NCBI GenBank assembly: GCA_020543525.1
Contig: JAHYIO010000023.1
Span: forward strand, 744,001 to 808,000
Origin: Coriolopsis trogii
Lineage: Eukaryota; Basidiomycota; Agaricomycetes; Polyporales; Polyporaceae
Direction: 5' to 3'
DNA length: 64,000 bases
Part shown: positions 7,265-17,665 of the stretch, in pieces
Layout: each line of letters opens with the position of its first letter
How positions within the stretch are numbered: the stretch's first letter is position 1
Position numbers and translations under genes: made by a program
The notes under the pieces: model-generated
What the model saw: only the letters and a program-made list of their open reading frames with translations
Told to the model about the DNA's origin: nothing
Databases searched by the model: none

Positions 7265-8130
7265 TTACAACTCCACCAGCGACCCAGCGTCGACCTGCCG
7301 GTACTTCTTGAACGCAGCCACGAGCTTGGCCCACCTCCCGTTATCCCAGGTGATCAACTCCTTCCACTTCTCGCTGTCCTCGCCGAGGGTGAGCTCGATC
7401 CAGGTGAGGAACGCGGCGAACGTGACGTCGGCGTACGCGATGTCGTCCCCGCCGAGCACGAAGAGCTTCTCCTCGCCGTCGGCCTCGAACCACTCTGCAT
7501 ACGTGTGGAAGACGGCCTTGGTGCCCGCCCACGCCTTCTTCTCCTTCTCGCTGCCCGGGGGCGCCAGGTCCTCGAGCTTGGAGTTGAAGAAGACCTCGCG
7601 GGTCGCGCGGAAGTACGCCTCGGAGCGCGCGTTCAGCTTGTCGTTCGAGGGGGGCATCATGATCGCGGGCACGTCGCCCCCGCCGAAGAGGGTGGACAGG
7701 AACGCGCGGTTGAACGCGGCGTGGAGCGCGTCGGTCTGCTTCGGGACGAGCGTGTGCGTGGACGGGTACGTCTTGTCGAGGTAGCGCGCGATGGCGGCCG
7801 AGTCGGACACCGTGCGCTTCGTGTTCGGGTCGTAGATCACGGGGAGCGTGTAGAGCGGGTTGCCGTCGGGGAGCGTGTCCGTCGGGGACGCGCCGATCTT
7901 CTTGCAGAGGGGCGCGACGTCGGGGTACTCGACCCAGACGGTCTTGTAGGGGATGCCCTTGATGTTCAGGGTGTATCTGCGACGTGGTGAGAGCGGTATC
8001 AGGCTGTGGGGCATGTGTGGGGCGAAGCCAACTGTTCGTACCTCGTCTTCCATGTATTGGGGTTCCAAGCTTGACTCTCGCTTGGCCCGACGTTGCGAGG
8101 GAAGTCGTAGAACACAATGGGCTCCGACAT
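7265..8130 (-). CDS. Etherase-like glutathione S-transferase (GSTFuA type), copy 3
   Basis: Complete GST of 266 aa in two exons, 8130-8042 and 7976-7265, with a 65-bp intron at the same place and phase as in the other copies. The start is MSEPIVFYDFPR. Signature WNPNTWKTR precedes YTLNIKGIPYKTVWVEYPDV. The helical half contains DSAAIARYLDKTYP and ends KKYRQVDAGSLVEL. Expected role is cytosolic glutathione-dependent modification of aromatic or xenobiotic compounds (family inference). It is separated from copies 1-2 by ERG24 and the coiled-coil gene, and from copy 4 by the helicase transposon, whose left end starts 438 bp upstream of its ATG. Confidence 0.93.
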
Positions 8131-8558: not shown

Positions 8559-8567
8559 AGGTCACGC
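8559..8567. repeat. 9-bp target-site duplication, left copy
   Basis: AGGTCACGC directly abuts the left inverted repeat. The identical nonamer abuts the right inverted repeat at 14543-14551 in the same orientation, as expected for staggered-cut transposition. Confidence 0.9.
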
Positions 8568-8776
8568 CAGGCTCCTGCCCATCCGTCGTTCGGGTTGAGG
8601 CAGAATCTCGAGGCGAAGACAAGGCTGAGATGAGTAGGCGCTACTTGGTGGAAGGTGGTGTGAGTCACGTGCTAGAGTGTGTTGGGCCTCAACCCTCACA
8701 GACGGCTGGCACCAAACACATGTAAATAACGGAGCCTCGGTTGATAGACGCCCCCGGTGCTACTCCGTTTGGTAGC
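8568..8776. repeat. Left terminal inverted repeat of the helicase element
   Basis: 209 bp that pair with 14336-14542. The inner 101 bp (8676-8776) are identical to the reverse complement of 14336-14436. A diverged middle part follows, then a conserved outer tip of about 38 bp beginning CAGGCTCCTGCCCATCCG. Confidence 0.93.
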
Positions 8777-8847
8777 TCCGCCGCACCCCCAAGAGGCTAT
8801 TGATTGACTTCGACTCTCCGGAACGCGTCGTTGACTTATACGCGTCG

Positions 8848-11612
8848 ATGAGCGCGCCCGCATCCCCTCTGCTTGCTCTCCCTAGTATCACCGACATAAG
8901 AGAGAAGACAGAAGAACAATTCAAGGTTCGCCCATGTCTCTGGCAATGCGAAGTTGCGCAAGCTCTTCTGGAAGGGAAGGAGGATGTAGTCTGCATTTCA
9001 GGTACGGGGTCAGGCAAGACTCTTCCGTTCTGGATGCCTCTGCTCTTCAGACCCGAGGGAGTTCAAGTTGTTGTCACGCCTCTCAACATCCTTGGCACAC
9101 AAAACAAAAATCGACTAGAGGACCTTCGGCTCCCCGCAATTAGCATTACCGCAGATACAGCAACGCTGCAGAATATCAAGGTAACACAACTGTGCAGTCA
9201 GATATGTGAGTACGTCACTCATTGGTACCATAACAGGACATACTTGCTTTCAAATACCGCGTCGTCGTCGTCAATCCCGAGATGGCATTCAAAGCCGGCG
9301 GGGTCTTCGAACCTGTGTGGCGTAATTTAGCGTTCATGTCACAGGTGATTAGCGTTATATGGGATGAAGCGCACCTCATGAAGGCATGGTCGTCATTCCG
9401 ATCAGAGTTGGGGCAAGCAGGACAACTCCGTGACATGATGTGCACATCTACGAGGTTCCTGTTGGCTTTGGCAACGTTGCCAGAAAGTGAGTTGGGAGAT
9501 GTCATGGAGTTGGCAGGGATGCAACAGAAGAACGTCAAGATTGTGCGCCGATCGAACGACCGTCCGAACGTCTATCTCACCGTACGCAAGATCCAGCACC
9601 CATTGGGCACATTTCGAGACCTCAAGTTCCTTGTCCCAGAGGACTGGGTACCAGGAACCCGATTCCCGCACTTCCTGGTGTTCTTCGACAACATTGAGGA
9701 GTCGATTAAGGCAGTCAACATTCTGCGTCTGCGCCTCCCCCCGGCCTTTCGTGACCGTCTAGTCTGGTTCAATGCCGACAACACGGCTGGGTTTCGTGAA
9801 AGGGCAACAGCCGAGTTTCACAAGCATGGCCGGTTCGGTCTGTTTTGCACAGACACGTTCGGGATGGTACGTACGTGCTATGTATTTACTTGATACTCAC
9901 TCACTGTATGCTCCAACAGGGTGTGGACATCCCAGATGTGGATGTAGTGGTCCAGTGGCGCCTAGGGTCTTCGTGCTCTATGAACACCCTTTGGCAGCGG
10001 TTTGGTCGAGCGGCACATGATCCTGAGAAAGAGGCTATTGCGATCTTGTTCGCTGAGTCCAAGTACTTCGATGATGAACGTGCCGCAGCCGCAAACCGAG
10101 CGCAAAAGAGAAAAGAGAAGGAGCAGAAGAAGGCAACGGAGAGTGAGTTGAGGAAACGCAAGCAGAGAGGAGGCGGCGGCGAGAATGCAAGTGGGAGGAT
10201 GCACAAGAAGCGGAAGACACATCGGGAGGTGGGCGACTCGGAGGATGTCACGGCTGTCACAGCGCTGGCAGATAGCCGCACGCAGAACTCGCAGGTGGCT
10301 CCGTACGAAACCCGGGAGCCGGGGACCGGTGTTCTCCTGTCTGACCTCGAGAAATTGCGAGTCCATTATCGAGAGTTGTCGGGTATACAGGGCGGAAAGG
10401 GAGGACCAGGACGAGCTAGGAATGTGAAGCAGAGCACAGCCCCAGACGACGGTCTGGCGCCCGAGGTCGACAGCTTCGTGAATGCTGGGAGTCGGGAGCT
10501 TGTTCGATGCTATCGAAAGGCTTTTACGGCATATTATGAGAACGACCGCATAGGTATGCTTCCCTTAAGGTTCTCCGTTCACGGAAACTTACTTTTATTA
10601 CATAACATAGGAGGCACAATAGAGAAGGGAGCATGTCGCAGGAATAGTGCGGCCTGCCCTCGGTGTATACCATCCCCGTCACCCGTCTGCTGCTCTCTCT
10701 GCTCGCCCGACGATCCAATCTGGCGCCCTCTCTCTATGCTTGACACAAACTTGTCAGACAAGCCGACCATTCCCCGCATCTCGCAAGTGGACACCACTGC
10801 ACCGCTAACTTCAACCGATATCGCATTCCGCGATGCTCTCCACACGTACCGTCGCGAAGAGACGGTGAGGCAGTACGGTGAGGTCCACCTCTTGAACATC
10901 GGGCCAGGTGCTGTGATGGGAAACCAAGTTCTCAAACGAATCGTATACTGCGCGCGAGCCAACAAGATCCGCTCGGCGGAGCAGTTGTACCGCGAGATGA
11001 AGTGGCATTGCGTCCGCGACCTTGGAGATGGTGTCCTCCAATTGATTGATAAGTGCGTGTTTCCCGTTTCCATATTGGCCTCTTAGCTTATGTTTTGCAG
11101 GTTCTATCCAGTTTCGAATGTGGCGCAACAGGAGCTAGGACGGGAGGGACATGTCGAGGTTCCTAAGGGACCCCTAGTACGGACATGTCGGTCGTGTGGG
11201 GGAACTGGCCATATCAGTACGTGCCCCACTTCCTGTGCCCGCATACTCAACGCTTAACCCAAGATCATTCTCCTCAGGTTCAAACCGTCTTTGTCCCAAG
11301 TTCAGGTTGAAACAACATCGTGACGGGAAGGAAAACAGCTCAGTGGCCGATGTCCATCGGGACGAGTTGGATTGCGAATGCTCGGCGAGTACCTCAGATG
11401 CGCAGAATCCCTCAGCTAGTAGGGTGGACAGCTCTGCACGATGGCATTCAGGGTACGATGACTTTTGGACCTCGTCTCTGTTCAGCACTCCCACATATCG
11501 GTGTGTTGCTGCCACCCTTCCCGTTCAGAACGGTAAGCCTCACATTGAAGTCTCAACAGCTATGTCCTCAGCAGTAATCTCGACGTCTAATATTTCCTCA
11601 TCTAGTGCATGA
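8848..11612 (+). CDS. RecQ-like DEAH-box helicase of the transposon
   Basis: SF2 helicase, 829 aa in six exons: 8848-9180, 9237-9866, 9920-10553, 10611-11052, 11101-11216 and 11278-11612. Visible motifs: Walker A GTGSGKT at residues 52-58, motif II DEAH at 154-157, motif V GVDIPDVDVVVQW at 322-334 and motif VI QRFGRAA at 347-353. The last resembles the RecQ QRxGRAGR form with the second Gly changed to Ala. After the motor come a Lys/Arg-rich nuclear-signal-like stretch (about 385-430) and a long cysteine-containing tail ending in a zinc-knuckle-like CX2CX4HX6C near residue 710. No HRDC domain is recognised. Intron 3 (10554-10610, 57 bp) is in frame and stop-free, so retention is possible. It probably unwinds ends or intermediates during transposition (inference). 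Its last 73 coding bases overlap the 3' end of the opposite gene. Confidence 0.88.
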
Positions 11613-14291
11613 TCACCTTCAGCCGCTCCCCCATCCGGATCATATCCCCAGCCCTTCCGCCCCTCCTCCTGCATAAATAGCTCCTCCCCGTTGTGTACAG
11701 CATCAGGTATTAGGTATGATGATGATCGTCCGCCTATATATTCATTCGCCTGCCATCTCTTGAGGTAGTCGAGTACGACTGCAAATGTTGCACGCATATC
11801 GCGTGTGGCGTGTTTCTGTGTGAGTCCAACGAGGGCAAAATTACCCTCGAGGTTTGCGTGGCTGTTGCGGAAGATCTGAATGAGTGGCGACTCTTCAATA
11901 ATGCGTGCTTTGGTATGGTTTGAAGCGTCTCCTCCATAGGTCACCTGTGGCTGTATAGAATGCATAGTATCCTAGATTGACCATGAAGATGACGTGGAAC
12001 ATACCTTTGACAACAAATTCTGCAGCTCTAACATCCAGTCAACCGCACGGAACTCTCCAACTTTCCCGCTTGGGTTGACCAAGATGTTATAGCGGATAGC
12101 ATGACTGTGGATCCCCGTTATTGAACACATGAGTACTTTAATCAGCTCTCAGTAGTATTTGAAACTCACCGCAACCCATCCGGGTACACAAAGTACAGAG
12201 CATGCATGAATCGGAGAGTATGTGTTGCGTACTTGTGTTTCCCGCAAGCCCGGAACAAACTGACCCATGGTATCAGCAGTGTCTCTACCCGCCCAATGTC
12301 CCCCATGTTGAGGGCGAATGTAAGCTCTTCGTAAAGAAGGAGGTAATGCATGGTACGCATTGTATTCTCGCGCACTTCGTCCCGGTCTGCTTTCGGCCGA
12401 CACTCGTACTTGAAGAAATCCGCCCCCTCGCCTTCAATGTAGTTCCGTACTAGAGACGACGCGATTTCATCGATAGCTTCTATTGAAGGTTTGCTTTTCG
12501 CCCATTCGTCAAGAGATTGACCGTTCATCCGCCTCGAAACCTCGACTTGCCATGCATCTATGACGAGTACAGCGAGAACGTGGTGTATCAACTCGTGCTG
12601 CTGCCGGAACTTCGCGTGGACCAGCTTTGAGCTCTCCTTCGGTCTCAGCTTCCCAATGATTGCTCGAAAGCTCGTTGGATCTGCTGAGGTCTTTGGTGGG
12701 ACCATCAGGATGCGCCATAGAGCGTCTGCCGCAGCCATCTTGAAGTGGAAGAGGCCTGGAACGAAAACGACTGATTGCAGTCTATCGTGAGGTGTCTCTT
12801 CAACTGAGCACCACCTGCGCGCTGAGAGGACCCGCTTATACGTCCCAAGGTCGCCGTGAACTACTGTGACAAATTCCGCAAGGTCGATGACATCTTGGTG
12901 TCCGGTGCTGGGATCCCCAACGCCTGCTTGTGCGAACATGTCCTGGAGCGCTGCAATGTTTCCAGAGACCTTTGACTGATTTAGGTCCATGGTGCGTAGC
13001 GGCCTGTGCTCCAGTTTCGTGGCCGGGATGGCCTCAACGGACTCCGGGTTAGACAGGGAATCTGCATATGTTGCAAGGCCGGAGGGACCATGTTCGTAGA
13101 GGAGCTTCTTCAACACCCAGGCACGGAAACGACCACGACGGCTTAACTCTCCGGGACGATACAGGCGGTCAGGGTGCAAAGCATACAGGTGGGAAAGTGT
13201 CTTGAATGGGTCAAAAGGGCGGGGATCTGTAGCGTGGATGTTGAGCTCCGACCTGTCCCAGAGGAGACGAGAACACTGCAGGTCTTCGAGTGAGACGCCA
13301 TGCTCAAGGCGAAGCAACATTCCGGATGTGAGATGTACCAGGCCCTCGCCCGGCTTATTGACAGTTGATATCCCAACATTGAGCTGGAACTCCATGTTGT
13401 CGTATGCGTAGCTTGCCAGGAGTGTCTGACCCAGAGTCTGGATATCGTTGCGGCTCTCTATTGAGAGTGATTTGATTGCGCGGTGAATCGAGCTGAGCGA
13501 GATAGATACTCCCATTCGCGACAGTAGTTTCATGACCTTCTCGGGCGCATTGGCAGCATGGAGGAAGATTCCAATAGTACTTTGTAGAGCGTTACACGGC
13601 TGACATTGTGATAACATGAGGATGGAGACAATTGTCACCGTACGCTAGGCAGGATAATCGAGTTCAATAAACTTGGGACTGCGGTCTTAGGGCCATCATC
13701 AGGACCTACAAGCTTGATAACTTCATCGTAACTACCCTGCCTACTCCCTCGTCCTCGACCCCTCCTGAGCGTTGGCACTGATTGACCCATATCCTCATCC
13801 CAGTACTCTGCATCTGAGTCGGAACCTCCATCGACAGCACCAGTCTCCTCCATTTCGACGTCATCGTCTGTCTTCACCGGAGGCCATCGAAGTCCTCTGA
13901 GGAGGCGCTGCACGAGAGTCCAGACATCTGGCGCACTCTCTTGCATGCGCGATGCCATATCCCCAATTCGAAACTCGCGCACCTGGGCGGGCTCGGCAAA
14001 TGTAGCCGAGAAATGCCACCCATGCTCAGGTCGGGAAAGGTCGAAGACTTGCTTCGCATATTGAGTGCACATCGCATCGTGGGCCCATTCACGTGTAGCG
14101 GCAGCGGTTGCAGGGTGGTAGTACAGACTAGACAGAATACTCTTCACATTGAGAGTGAGGTCGTGGTAGACCAAGTACTCCGGGTTGTTGCGTTCCTTCG
14201 AGACCAGCAGCAGGAGAATAAGCTCAGTCAAAGTTATATTGTGCGACTCAAGATACGCGAGCATGTTGAGAAGGACTTCGCGGCGCACCAT
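11540..14291 (-). CDS. DUF6589-like protein, candidate RNase-H-fold transposase
   Basis: 855 aa in four exons: 14291-13710, 13644-12170, 12104-12005 and 11950-11540. I recognise it as like the abundant basidiomycete DUF6589 proteins, which to my knowledge have no assigned function. Family blocks: VTIVSILMLSQCQPCNALQS then GIFLHAANAPEKV near residue 200, SYAYDNMEFQLNVG near 276, VVHGDLGTYKRV near 459, FHFKMAAADALWRI, GKHKYATHTLRFMHALY, and AIRYNILVNPSGKVGEFRAV to YGGDASNH near the C-terminus. The isolated acidic residues D276 and D459 in hydrophobic-strand contexts look like RNase-H-fold catalytic aspartates (inference). As the only non-helicase gene between the repeats it is the best transposase candidate. 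The first intron (13645-13709) was chosen because it joins the conserved ILMLSQ block in frame. No membrane or secretion signal is seen. Confidence 0.85.
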
Positions 14292-14335
14292 AGCAGAACA
14301 GAAGTGGCAAGTCGTCGTGAGCAAGTATCGGAATC

Positions 14336-14542
14336 GCTACCAAACGGAGTAGCACCGGGGGCGTCTATCAACCGAGGCTCCGTTATTTACATGTGTTTGG
14401 TGCCAGCCGTCTGTGAGGGTTGAGGCCCAACACACTTATACACGTGACCTCCTCCTCTCCTGTGTCCAGCGCTTCATGACTTAGCCTGTCTCTCGCCTCA
14501 GGATTCTGGCCTCAACCCGAACGACGGATGGGCAGGAGCCTG
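14336..14542. repeat. Right terminal inverted repeat of the helicase element
   Basis: 207 bp that pair with 8568-8776, identical over the inner 101 bp (14336-14436) and ending in GGAGCCTG immediately before the duplicated target site. Confidence 0.93.
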
Positions 14543-14551
14543 AGGTCACGC
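14543..14551. repeat. 9-bp target-site duplication, right copy
   Basis: AGGTCACGC, identical to 8559-8567, directly after the right inverted repeat. Confidence 0.9.
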
Positions 14552-15778: not shown

Positions 15779-16633
15779 ATGCCGAAGCCCATCATCTTCT
15801 ACGACATTCCCTGCAAGGTGCAGGGGAAAGCCTGGTCGCCCAACACCTGGAAAACACGGTGAGAAGCCCACACACCCTGCAGCAGCCCCGAGTCATCTCA
15901 CAAGCGCGCAACGCGGCATCGTCACAGTTATATCCTGAACATCAAGGGCCTCCCATACGAGACCGTCTGGGTCGAGTTCCCTGATATCGCGCCCCTCTCC
16001 AAGAAGCTCGGCGCGCCTCCTTCCGCCCGCAACCGGGACGGCTCCCCTGTCTACACCGCGCCGTTCATCTACGACCCCAACACGGAGACGTTCGTGACAG
16101 AGTCGGCCGCAATCGCCCTCTACCTCGACAAGACGTACCCGGACACGTACCAGACGATCCCCGAAGGCACCGAGGCTCTCCACGCCGCGTTTAACCACGC
16201 GTTCAGGAGCCTGCTGCTGGGCACGGACATGCTGTCCATCATGATCCCCGCGGTGCACGACGCACTCAACCCCGCCGCCCAGCCGTACTTCCGCCAGACG
16301 CGGGAGAAGCTGCTGGGCAAGCTGGAGGACTGCGCGCCGGCGGGCAGCGAGAAACGGGCGAAGCACTGGCAGGGCGTGCAGAAGTCGTTCCACACCATCG
16401 CCGAATGGCTCAAGAACGGCGGCACGGAGAGGCAGTTCTTCGGGGGTGCGGACAGGATCTACTATGCGGATATCAACGTGGCCAGTTTCTTGGCCTGGAT
16501 CAGGGCGATATATGGTGAAGAGAGCAAAGAGTGGAAGGACGTCCTGGACTGGGACGGTGGGCGGTGGGGGAAGTTCATGGACGCGATGAAGAAGTACGAA
16601 GCCGTCGATGCTGGGACGCCGGCCAAACTCTGA
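15779..16633 (+). CDS. Etherase-like glutathione S-transferase (GSTFuA type), copy 4
   Basis: Complete GST of 261 aa on the opposite strand from the other three. Exons are 15779-15858 and 15928-16633, with a 69-bp intron at the shared position. The start MPKPIIFYDIPC is followed by WSPNTWKTR, YILNIKGLPYETVWVEFPDI, ESAAIALYLDKTYPDT and the C-terminal KKYEAVDAGTPAKL. The last block lets the missing end of copy 1 be predicted. Likely a cytosolic glutathione-dependent detoxification enzyme. The inversion relative to copies 1-3 and the two mobile elements between copies 3 and 4 suggest local rearrangement of an originally tandem cluster. Confidence 0.93.
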
Positions 16634-17137
16634 TAGTCTAACTACGGATGCATGTGAGAACCCGGAGAACCTTGATGCAAAACATCCATACTCTGATGAC
16701 CTCCACAGCCTGCCCATTTGGATCCGGATACTGTTTTGACTCGGTACCGGCGAAGGTTGACGCGCGTCTCCTCTGCACGATGTATCAGGGTATACCGCAG
16801 CTGCGTATACAGACTTCGTGTCTTCCTCATCGATGTTTGTCTGTACCGTCGCCTACGCATACAGCTTCCACGGGCCGAAAAGCCTTGTAGGACACATGGT
16901 CCGCAGCGAAGACGCTGCGCAGTGCAACGCCTTGACATCTCACACCTGCGGTAGGTCACGAGCGCTCCTGCACCTATAAAGCCCAGCGAGGACGGACCAT
17001 GCCTGGTACCTACCGTACCTGCGTTCGTATCCTCTGCCCGAGAAAACCCTCAGACCAGAGTGAGCCATAAAGTGTCCCGAAAGCCTCACAAGTCGTCAAC
17101 TCACCTAATCTCGACCTTCCAGTCAACTCAACCTCCC
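16634..17137. other. Intergenic region between GST copy 4 and the GNAT gene
   Basis: 504 bp containing the 3' flank of GST copy 4 and the promoter of the acetyltransferase. No exon, tRNA or repeat is recognised. Confidence 0.5.
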
Positions 17138-17665
17138 ATGATCATCTCCACTCCCGTCGTCCGCCTCGCCTCCAAGTCAGACATCCAAGTGCTGGCACCG
17201 CTCTTCGTCTCATCACTCGACACAAGTATCCCCGGAGTCAAGTTCTCCACTCTACCGCTATACGCACCCGACAAGGTAGCCCCAAGGCTGCTCGAGCGCC
17301 TCTTCCCACCGAGTTCCTATAAAACATACGTTCTCGAGCTCCCCACCGGGGATATCGTCGGGTACGCGAACGTAAAACCCAACGGCGGACCGAGGGGTGT
17401 CGAAGACGAACTCGACATGTTTTTTGTGAGGGCCGACCTGGGTGGACGAGGGTACGGTGGCCAGCTCATGAAAGCTATCCAAGCGGACTGGAGTAAACGC
17501 GGCCTGTGTTTGCGGGTGTTCGAGAGGAACGAACGAGCGAGACGGTTCTACGACAAGTGGGGATTCCGGCTGGTCGAGGGCGCCGAAGAGAAGGTGATGT
17601 TTAGTCTGGCCGATGGACCGAGAGAGGAGACGGCATGCTTGATGCGGTGGTCAAATACCTCGTGA
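17138..17665 (+). CDS. GNAT-family N-acetyltransferase
   Basis: Intronless, 175 aa. The start is the ATG at 17138 (MIISTPVVRLASKSDIQ); an in-frame GTG at 17060 extends upstream but has no coding look. A single GNAT fold is visible: beta-strand YVLELPTGDIVGYANVKP near residue 65, the acetyl-CoA loop VRADLGGRGYGGQLM with the R/Q-x-x-G-x-G/A signature near residue 105, then LCLRVFERNERARRFYDKWGF near residue 130. The NxxARRFYxKxGF pattern is typical of motif B in GNAT enzymes. No targeting signal is seen, so it is probably cytosolic. The substrate cannot be assigned. It converges on the kinesin gene with 320 bp between stop codons. Confidence 0.88.
   Translation: MIISTPVVRLASKSDIQVLAPLFVSSLDTSIPGVKFSTLPLYAPDKVAPRLLERLFPPSSYKTYVLELPTGDIVGYANVKPNGGPRGVEDELDMFFVRADLGGRGYGGQLMKAIQADWSKRGLCLRVFERNERARRFYDKWGFRLVEGAEEKVMFSLADGPREETACLMRWSNTS

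What the first reader, a model, noticed from the sequence alone, without database searches (positions are those of the whole stretch)
8559..14551. Complete DNA transposon pairing a RecQ-like helicase with a DUF6589-like candidate transposase
The sequence directly shows 207-209 bp inverted repeats, a perfect 9-bp target duplication (AGGTCACGC) and exactly two convergent, uninterrupted genes inside. One is a RecQ-like helicase with all main SF2 motifs; the other belongs to a widespread basidiomycete family of unknown function. I know no superfamily that carries this pair. If the pairing recurs, DUF6589 proteins would be the transposases of an unrecognised fungal transposon class whose mobility depends on a helicase.
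Basis: partly seen in the sequence, partly recalled or inferred. Interest (0 to 1): 0.93.

Follow-up and report, generated by a model that had tools for sequence, protein, structure and literature searches.

The report
AcademH-like helicase-carrying fungal DNA transposon
A complete mobile DNA element in a mushroom-forming fungus carries its own DNA-unwinding enzyme together with a protein whose family had no known function and which looks like the enzyme that moves the element; it closely matches a kind of jumping gene, AcademH, that has already been described.

Summary
Window 8568-14542 is a 5,975-bp DNA transposon with 207-209-bp terminal inverted repeats, a perfect 9-bp target duplication and two convergent, intron-containing, uninterrupted genes: a RecQ-like helicase (829 aa) and a DUF6589 protein (860 aa).

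The pairing recurs. In the same genome all 10 places matched by the helicase query lie within 4 kb of a DUF6589 match (12 DUF6589 places). Of 21 elements examined, 16 have perfect 9-bp duplications; two insertions have uninterrupted empty sites. In public proteins, 28 contig lengths are shared by DUF6589 and helicase hits.

DUF6589 is very probably the transposase: models of two homologues show an RNase H-like core with a conserved D-D-E triad and an alpha-helical insertion, nearest to Hermes, P element and RAG1.

'Unrecognised class' is not supported. AcademH, a described Academ lineage of fungi and animals, encodes a helicase and makes 9-10-bp duplications. Its defining paper was not held and no Academ sequence was at hand, so homology to the Academ transposase is untested. 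What may be new is the identity of DUF6589 (0 held papers name it) and two sublineages with different ends and gene order.

The parts
8559..8567 (+). left copy of the 9-bp target-site duplication AGGTCACGC
8568..8776 (+). left terminal inverted repeat (209 bp), begins CAGGCTCCTG
8848..11612 (+). RecQ-like SF2 helicase gene, 829 aa; exons 8848-9180, 9237-9866, 9920-10553, 10611-11052, 11101-11216, 11278-11612; PF00270 + PF00271, cysteine clusters and a CCHC-like knuckle (below Pfam cut-off) towards the C-terminus
   Evidence: splicing by hand; Pfam; nearest solved sequence WRN 8pfp_A E=1.4e-15; motif conservation
11540..14291 (-). DUF6589 (PF20231) candidate DDE transposase gene, 860 aa; exons 14291-13644, 13599-12170, 12104-12005, 11944-11540; proposed triad D283 (codon 13401-13399), D466 (12852-12850), E719 (12028-12026)
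   Evidence: fold of homologues
14336..14542 (-). right terminal inverted repeat (207 bp), ends CAGGAGCCTG
14543..14551 (+). right copy of the 9-bp target-site duplication AGGTCACGC

Best explanation
This is an autonomous DNA transposon of the AcademH kind (Academ superfamily). The DUF6589 protein is the DDE transposase. [quoted passage not shown] Inferred: it binds the long TIRs, cuts next to the CAGGCTCC ends, and joins the ends to target DNA with a 9-bp stagger, which is repaired to the 9-bp duplication. Inferred: the RecQ-like helicase encoded in cis helps by unwinding the transposon ends or by processing gapped or branched intermediates. Shown: shorter elements with the same ends and mostly the same 9-bp duplications exist in the genome, one of them carrying a helicase exon-1 remnant. 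Inferred: these are moved in trans by the two proteins.
Confidence: 0.83

Rival explanations
1. A separate DDE superfamily, not Academ: DUF6589 would be the transposase of an unnamed superfamily that took up a RecQ helicase independently and happens to make 9-bp TSDs like AcademH.
For: Direct homology to Academ was not testable. DUF6589 occurs in no held paper. No PDB relative by sequence. Listed homologues with names are all Agaricomycetes.
Against: The described AcademH features that could be tested match: helicase, 9-bp TSD, fungal host at low copy.
Confidence: 0.11
2. KolobokH or another helicase-carrying Kolobok element.
For: RecQ helicase and fungal host; the same paper notes one Kolobok element of a red alga with a RecQ helicase on the complementary strand, as here (PMC9587614 passages).
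Against: [quoted passage not shown] The Kolobok signature C/DxxH is absent: the residue three before conserved H464 is G461 in 205/210. The TSD is 9 bp and varied; Kolobok's TTAA is recalled.
Confidence: 0.02
3. Non-autonomous carrier: the TIR element is moved by something else and DUF6589 and the helicase are passengers.
For: Transposition itself was not observed. Short elements with the same ends carry neither complete gene.
Against: Both genes stay together in two sublineages with different ends (CAGGCTCC / TAGRCTCG) and different gene order, each with 9-bp TSDs. DUF6589 homologues have a DDE fold. The two genes fill most of the element, and Pfam on six ORFs and both spliced proteins named no other transposase.
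Confidence: 0.03
4. Ordinary single-copy host genes, with the repeats a coincidence.
For: None found.
Against: Multi-copy, TSD-flanked, two copies with empty sites.
Confidence: 0.01

Closest known systems
AcademH (lineage of the Academ DNA transposon superfamily; Kojima 2020, Mob DNA 11:15, not held; known here through PMC10045372 and PMC10799480)
   Same: Helicase encoded with the transposase, 9-bp TSD (AcademH 9 or 10 bp), fungal host; helicase domains PF00270/PF00271, which attributes jointly to AcademH, KolobokH or Helitron
   Different: Transposase homology not tested. The DUF6589 name, the two end-types and the two gene orders are not mentioned in the passages seen.
Non-autonomous Academ elements of the mushroom Marasmius oreades (PMC8290104, methods section part 1 and passages)
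   Same: Short elements of a basidiomycete assigned to Academ by end motifs and TSD length
   Different: Their end sequences and TSD lengths are not given in the text seen, so they could not be compared
KolobokH (Kolobok superfamily)
   Same: RecQ helicase in a fungal DDE transposon (PMC9587614 passages)
   Different: Helicase lies downstream of the transposase domain there; here separate convergent genes, 9-bp TSD, no C/DxxH signature
hAT (Hermes) and P element transposases
   Same: Nearest folds: RNase H core with an alpha-helical insertion
   Different: No sequence match to solved structures, no C/DxxH, 9-bp instead of 8-bp TSD (8 bp recalled), extra helicase gene

Membership tests
AcademH | encodes a helicase in addition to the transposase | tested here: met
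   RecQ-like helicase 8848-11612; feature from PMC10045372
AcademH | 9- or 10-bp target-site duplications | tested here: met
   9/9 at the window element; 16 of 21 elements; feature
AcademH | Academ-type DDE transposase by sequence homology | not testable with these tools
   No Academ sequence held, primary paper not held. A DDE fold and triad are predicted for DUF6589, but not which superfamily.
AcademH | terminal inverted repeats | tested here: met
   207/209 bp, (that AcademH bears TIRs is recalled)
AcademH | found in fungi, including Basidiomycota, at low copy | tested here: met
   12 DUF6589 places in this genome; named homologues are Agaricomycetes; feature from PMC10799480
[quoted passage not shown]
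   Separate genes on opposite strands; feature from PMC9587614, which also notes one red-algal Kolobok with the helicase on the other strand
[quoted passage not shown]
   G461 three residues before conserved H464 in 205/210; feature from PMC9587614. That H464 is the counterpart of the motif's H is inferred.
KolobokH | TTAA target duplication (recalled) | tested here: not met
   varied 9-bp TSDs
hAT | 8-bp TSD (recalled) and C/DxxH signature | tested here: not met
   C/DxxH for hAT
DDE transposases in general | RNase H-like fold with three catalytic acidic residues | tested here: met
   by prediction only, on homologues; no activity measured

The most novel reading that the evidence does not exclude
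The DUF6589-helicase elements are a DDE superfamily of their own, parallel to AcademH and not part of it. In that reading at least two unrelated eukaryotic transposon lineages independently paired a helicase with a transposase that makes 9-bp staggered cuts. At least two sublineages, with different ends and inverted gene order, would share one helicase-dependent mechanism.
Probability: 0.12. Interest if true: 0.7.

Novelty: new member of a known kind. Interest (0 to 1): 0.42.

Why it matters
Hundreds of mushroom-fungus proteins are filed under a family of unknown function (334 hits, 177), and one Ganoderma DUF6589 protein is named as an RNA helicase in UniRef (P0020). If DUF6589 is the transposase of helicase-carrying transposons, those genes should be counted as mobile DNA, not host genes. 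The TSDs and empty sites also give a defined substrate for testing why a transposon would carry its own helicase.

Tried and rejected
Host genes: rejected by copy number, TSDs and empty sites. KolobokH: rejected by gene layout, signature and TSD, though one search also mentions a red-algal Kolobok with an opposite-strand RecQ. Nested in a larger inverted-repeat element: the outer 96-bp inverted repeat around the insertion (7889-7984 / 15920-16015) lies in or beside two oppositely oriented glutathione S-transferase-like genes, so it is read as paralogous genes, not a transposon.

Led nowhere: the Kojima 2020 paper was not held by DOI or PMC id. Paper searches: 'DUF6589' 0 papers, 'Academ-H' 0, Academ + XPG + transposons 0, Academ + Basidiomycota + transposase 2, RecQ helicase + transposon + basidiomycete + terminal inverted repeats 1, on Helitrons, not opened. 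PMC12210899 and PMC9970103 (passages) name AcademH only in reference lists; PMC10294476 (passages) treats Academ of bivalves without its anatomy. A profile of 71 DUF6589 sequences matched no PDB sequence at E<=1. BFVD gave no match at E<=0.001; its best row (E 0.048) is a hAT-like Pandoravirus protein. A protein search with a distant copy gave only Agaricomycetes among named hits and no animal homologue in the 120 listed of 177. Academ is not among the folds listed. Empty-site search: 15 elements were prepared, 1 was dropped for a missing flank, and 2 of the 14 sent gave an uninterrupted site; the window's own joined flanks, sent apart, gave none; C36:453120, C25:641248 and the three elements were not tried. 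The TSD count leaves out C28:2526851-2533254 (one end found) and C30 (no ends found), and six lone TIR matches. The boundary of C3:3537823-3543780 was found by a +-12 scan; the ends of C28:2252485, C20:30267, C3:1145810 and C36:453120 were chosen by eye before testing, so they are less independent than the rest. For the contig-length count 119 of the 120 listed DUF6589 proteins had a contig length; the organism names of all 28 pairs agree by eye, but for the 48,966-bp contig (P0017/P0145) the printed scaffold names differ. The motif count used 82 of the 84 helicase hits.

Full report
Observation. The sequence shows the 9-mer AGGTCACGC at 8559-8567 and 14543-14551, directly abutting ends that read CAGGCTCCTG inwards. 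The TIRs are 209 and 207 bp, 87% identical, with a 113-nt inner arm at 96% complementarity. Hand splicing with GT-AG introns gives a + strand helicase of 829 aa in six exons and a - strand DUF6589 protein of 860 aa in four exons. Neither predicted frame is broken, and their 3' ends overlap by 73 bp. Pfam finds DEAD and Helicase_C in the first, and DUF6589 (1.4e-95) in the second. These are predicted gene models; no transcript was available.

Recurrence in the same genome. The window lies in a 38.8-Mb assembly of 39 contigs. DUF6589 matches fall into 12 places (21 exon matches, grouped by eye). The helicase query (the 203-aa ORF that covers most of exon 2) matches 10 places at E<=0.001, and all 10 lie within 4 kb of a DUF6589 match. 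The 2 unpaired DUF6589 places are a short deleted copy (C3:1145810-1147486) and a degenerate one (C7). The left TIR finds 34 matches; 18 of them are the paired ends of nine short elements and six are lone.

Target duplications. I tested the bases flanking both ends of 21 elements: 8 that hold both genes and 13 shorter ones. 16 have a 9/9 match at exactly 9 bp, 2 have 8/9, 1 has 7/9 and 2 have none (C25:641248-642001 and C36:453120-460048). Random 9-mers from the same loci match 9/9 in 6 of 400,000 draws. Of the 10 helicase-DUF6589 loci, 8 have both ends identified and 7 of those 8 have a perfect 9-bp TSD; one (C28:2526851-2533254) has a single recognisable end, and C30 has none found.

Empty sites. 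Joined flanks of 14 elements were searched in the same genome. The element C1:3870141-3876206, which holds both genes, sits in a repeat whose copy at C33:1332464-1332599 aligns gaplessly across the junction with one copy of ACACCGGTC (134/136 identical), and six further copies agree at 92-93% with one base changed in the 9-mer. The short element C3:1586039-1586759 has an uninterrupted site with one copy of GCTCTGAAC at C1:261031-261139. The other 12 gave no uninterrupted site, nor did the window's own element. For the two, the 9-bp repeats arose on insertion.

Short elements. Elements of 91 to 829 bp, and three of 1.7 to 2.1 kb, share the ends (for the TAGRCTCG one) and, but for C25, a TSD of 9 bp with at most two differences. 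One, C28:1330435-1331263, carries a piece of helicase exon 1 (residues 16-56, 71% identical), which suggests that it arose by internal deletion of an element that carried the helicase.

Two sublineages. In the window's lineage the genes converge and the ends read CAGGCTCC. In C28:2252485-2260134 and C20:30267-38713 the genes diverge (positions) and the ends read TAGGCTCG or TAGACTCG, again with perfect 9-bp TSDs. The two genes thus stay together even where order and ends have changed, which speaks for a functional partnership.

Recurrence in other fungi. The DUF6589 search returned 334 proteins and listed 120; the helicase search returned 84. Comparing the 'longest contig' lengths of 119 and 84 proteins, 28 lengths are shared, 7 of them under 100 kb, including an 8,496-bp Ganoderma leucocontextum contig; the organism names agree in all 28, though for one T. 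cinnabarina pair the printed scaffold names differ. Gene tags are neighbours in Trametes cinnabarina (scf184970.g97/g98), T. pubescens (TRAPUB_13660/13661) and Cerrena zonata (QCA50_004608/004609), and two apart in Phlebia brevispora (NM688_g2636/g2638). Both lists were cut, so the counts are not complete.

The helicase. Its nearest solved relatives by sequence are WRN, RECQ5 and RecQ. Over up to 83 aligned sequences, GK of Walker A is invariant (73/73) and DE of motif II is 80/80. In motif VI the window copy has H354 where 75 of 82 have R, so this copy's helicase may be weakened; that was not tested. The family has conserved cysteines (C541-C563) and a CCHC-like knuckle (C709-C724; Pfam zf-CCHC below its cut-off).

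What it is. The helicase, the 9-bp TSD, the TIRs and the fungal host together match AcademH. PMC10045372 (2023, passages read) states that AcademH makes 9- or 10-bp TSDs and AcademX 3 or 4, and says that the difference seems related to their helicase and nuclease. PMC10799480 (passages) says that AcademH occurs at low copy in Basidiomycota, Ascomycota and Mucoromycota, and attributes DEAD and Helicase_C domains jointly to AcademH, KolobokH or Helitron. The defining paper (Kojima 2020) was not held; I recalled it and know it here only through citing papers. PMC9587614 (passages) describes KolobokH, the only other helicase-carrying DDE lineage of fungi that I met; TSD and signature exclude it, and its layout differs, although one red-algal Kolobok with an opposite-strand RecQ is mentioned there. 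I therefore file the element as a probable AcademH family with one defining feature, homology to the Academ transposase, untested.

Novelty. A new family of a described kind. No held paper contains the word DUF6589, so the identity of that Pfam family as a transposase may be unstated in print; subscription papers, Repbase and Pfam pages were not searched.

Noticed in passing
window 7265-8068 (-), 16094-16633 (+): The element is inserted between two oppositely oriented (divergent) glutathione S-transferase-like genes (PF22041; PF13409 in the left one), in their shared upstream region; similar DNA also occurs at 515-673 and 1856-2166.
   Followed up: partly
G000:C36:1947477-1954853 (L048, L054, L063, L007, L047): A copy with both genes that is about 1.4 kb longer than its relative on C34, with about 1.4 kb of extra sequence between parts of the helicase gene; its left flank is the end sequence of the other (TAGACTCG) sublineage.
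   Followed up: partly
G000:C30:729685-733775 (L002, L061): A DUF6589-helicase pair for which no terminal repeats were found; either a degraded element or a pair that no longer moves.
   Followed up: partly
window 10016-10018, helicase residue 354 (motif VI, exon 3): The window's helicase has H where 75 of 82 aligned sequences have R.
   Followed up: no
window 17060-17665 (+): GNAT acetyltransferase-like ORF downstream of the right glutathione S-transferase gene.
   Followed up: no
window 16204: A lone CAGGAGCCTG, identical to the right end of the element; no second left-type end CAGGCTCCTG is in the window.
   Followed up: no
protein P0020 (Ganoderma boninense, UniRef): A DUF6589 protein carries the name 'ATP-dependent RNA helicase CshA', perhaps a misannotation or a gene-model fusion with a neighbouring helicase.
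   Followed up: no
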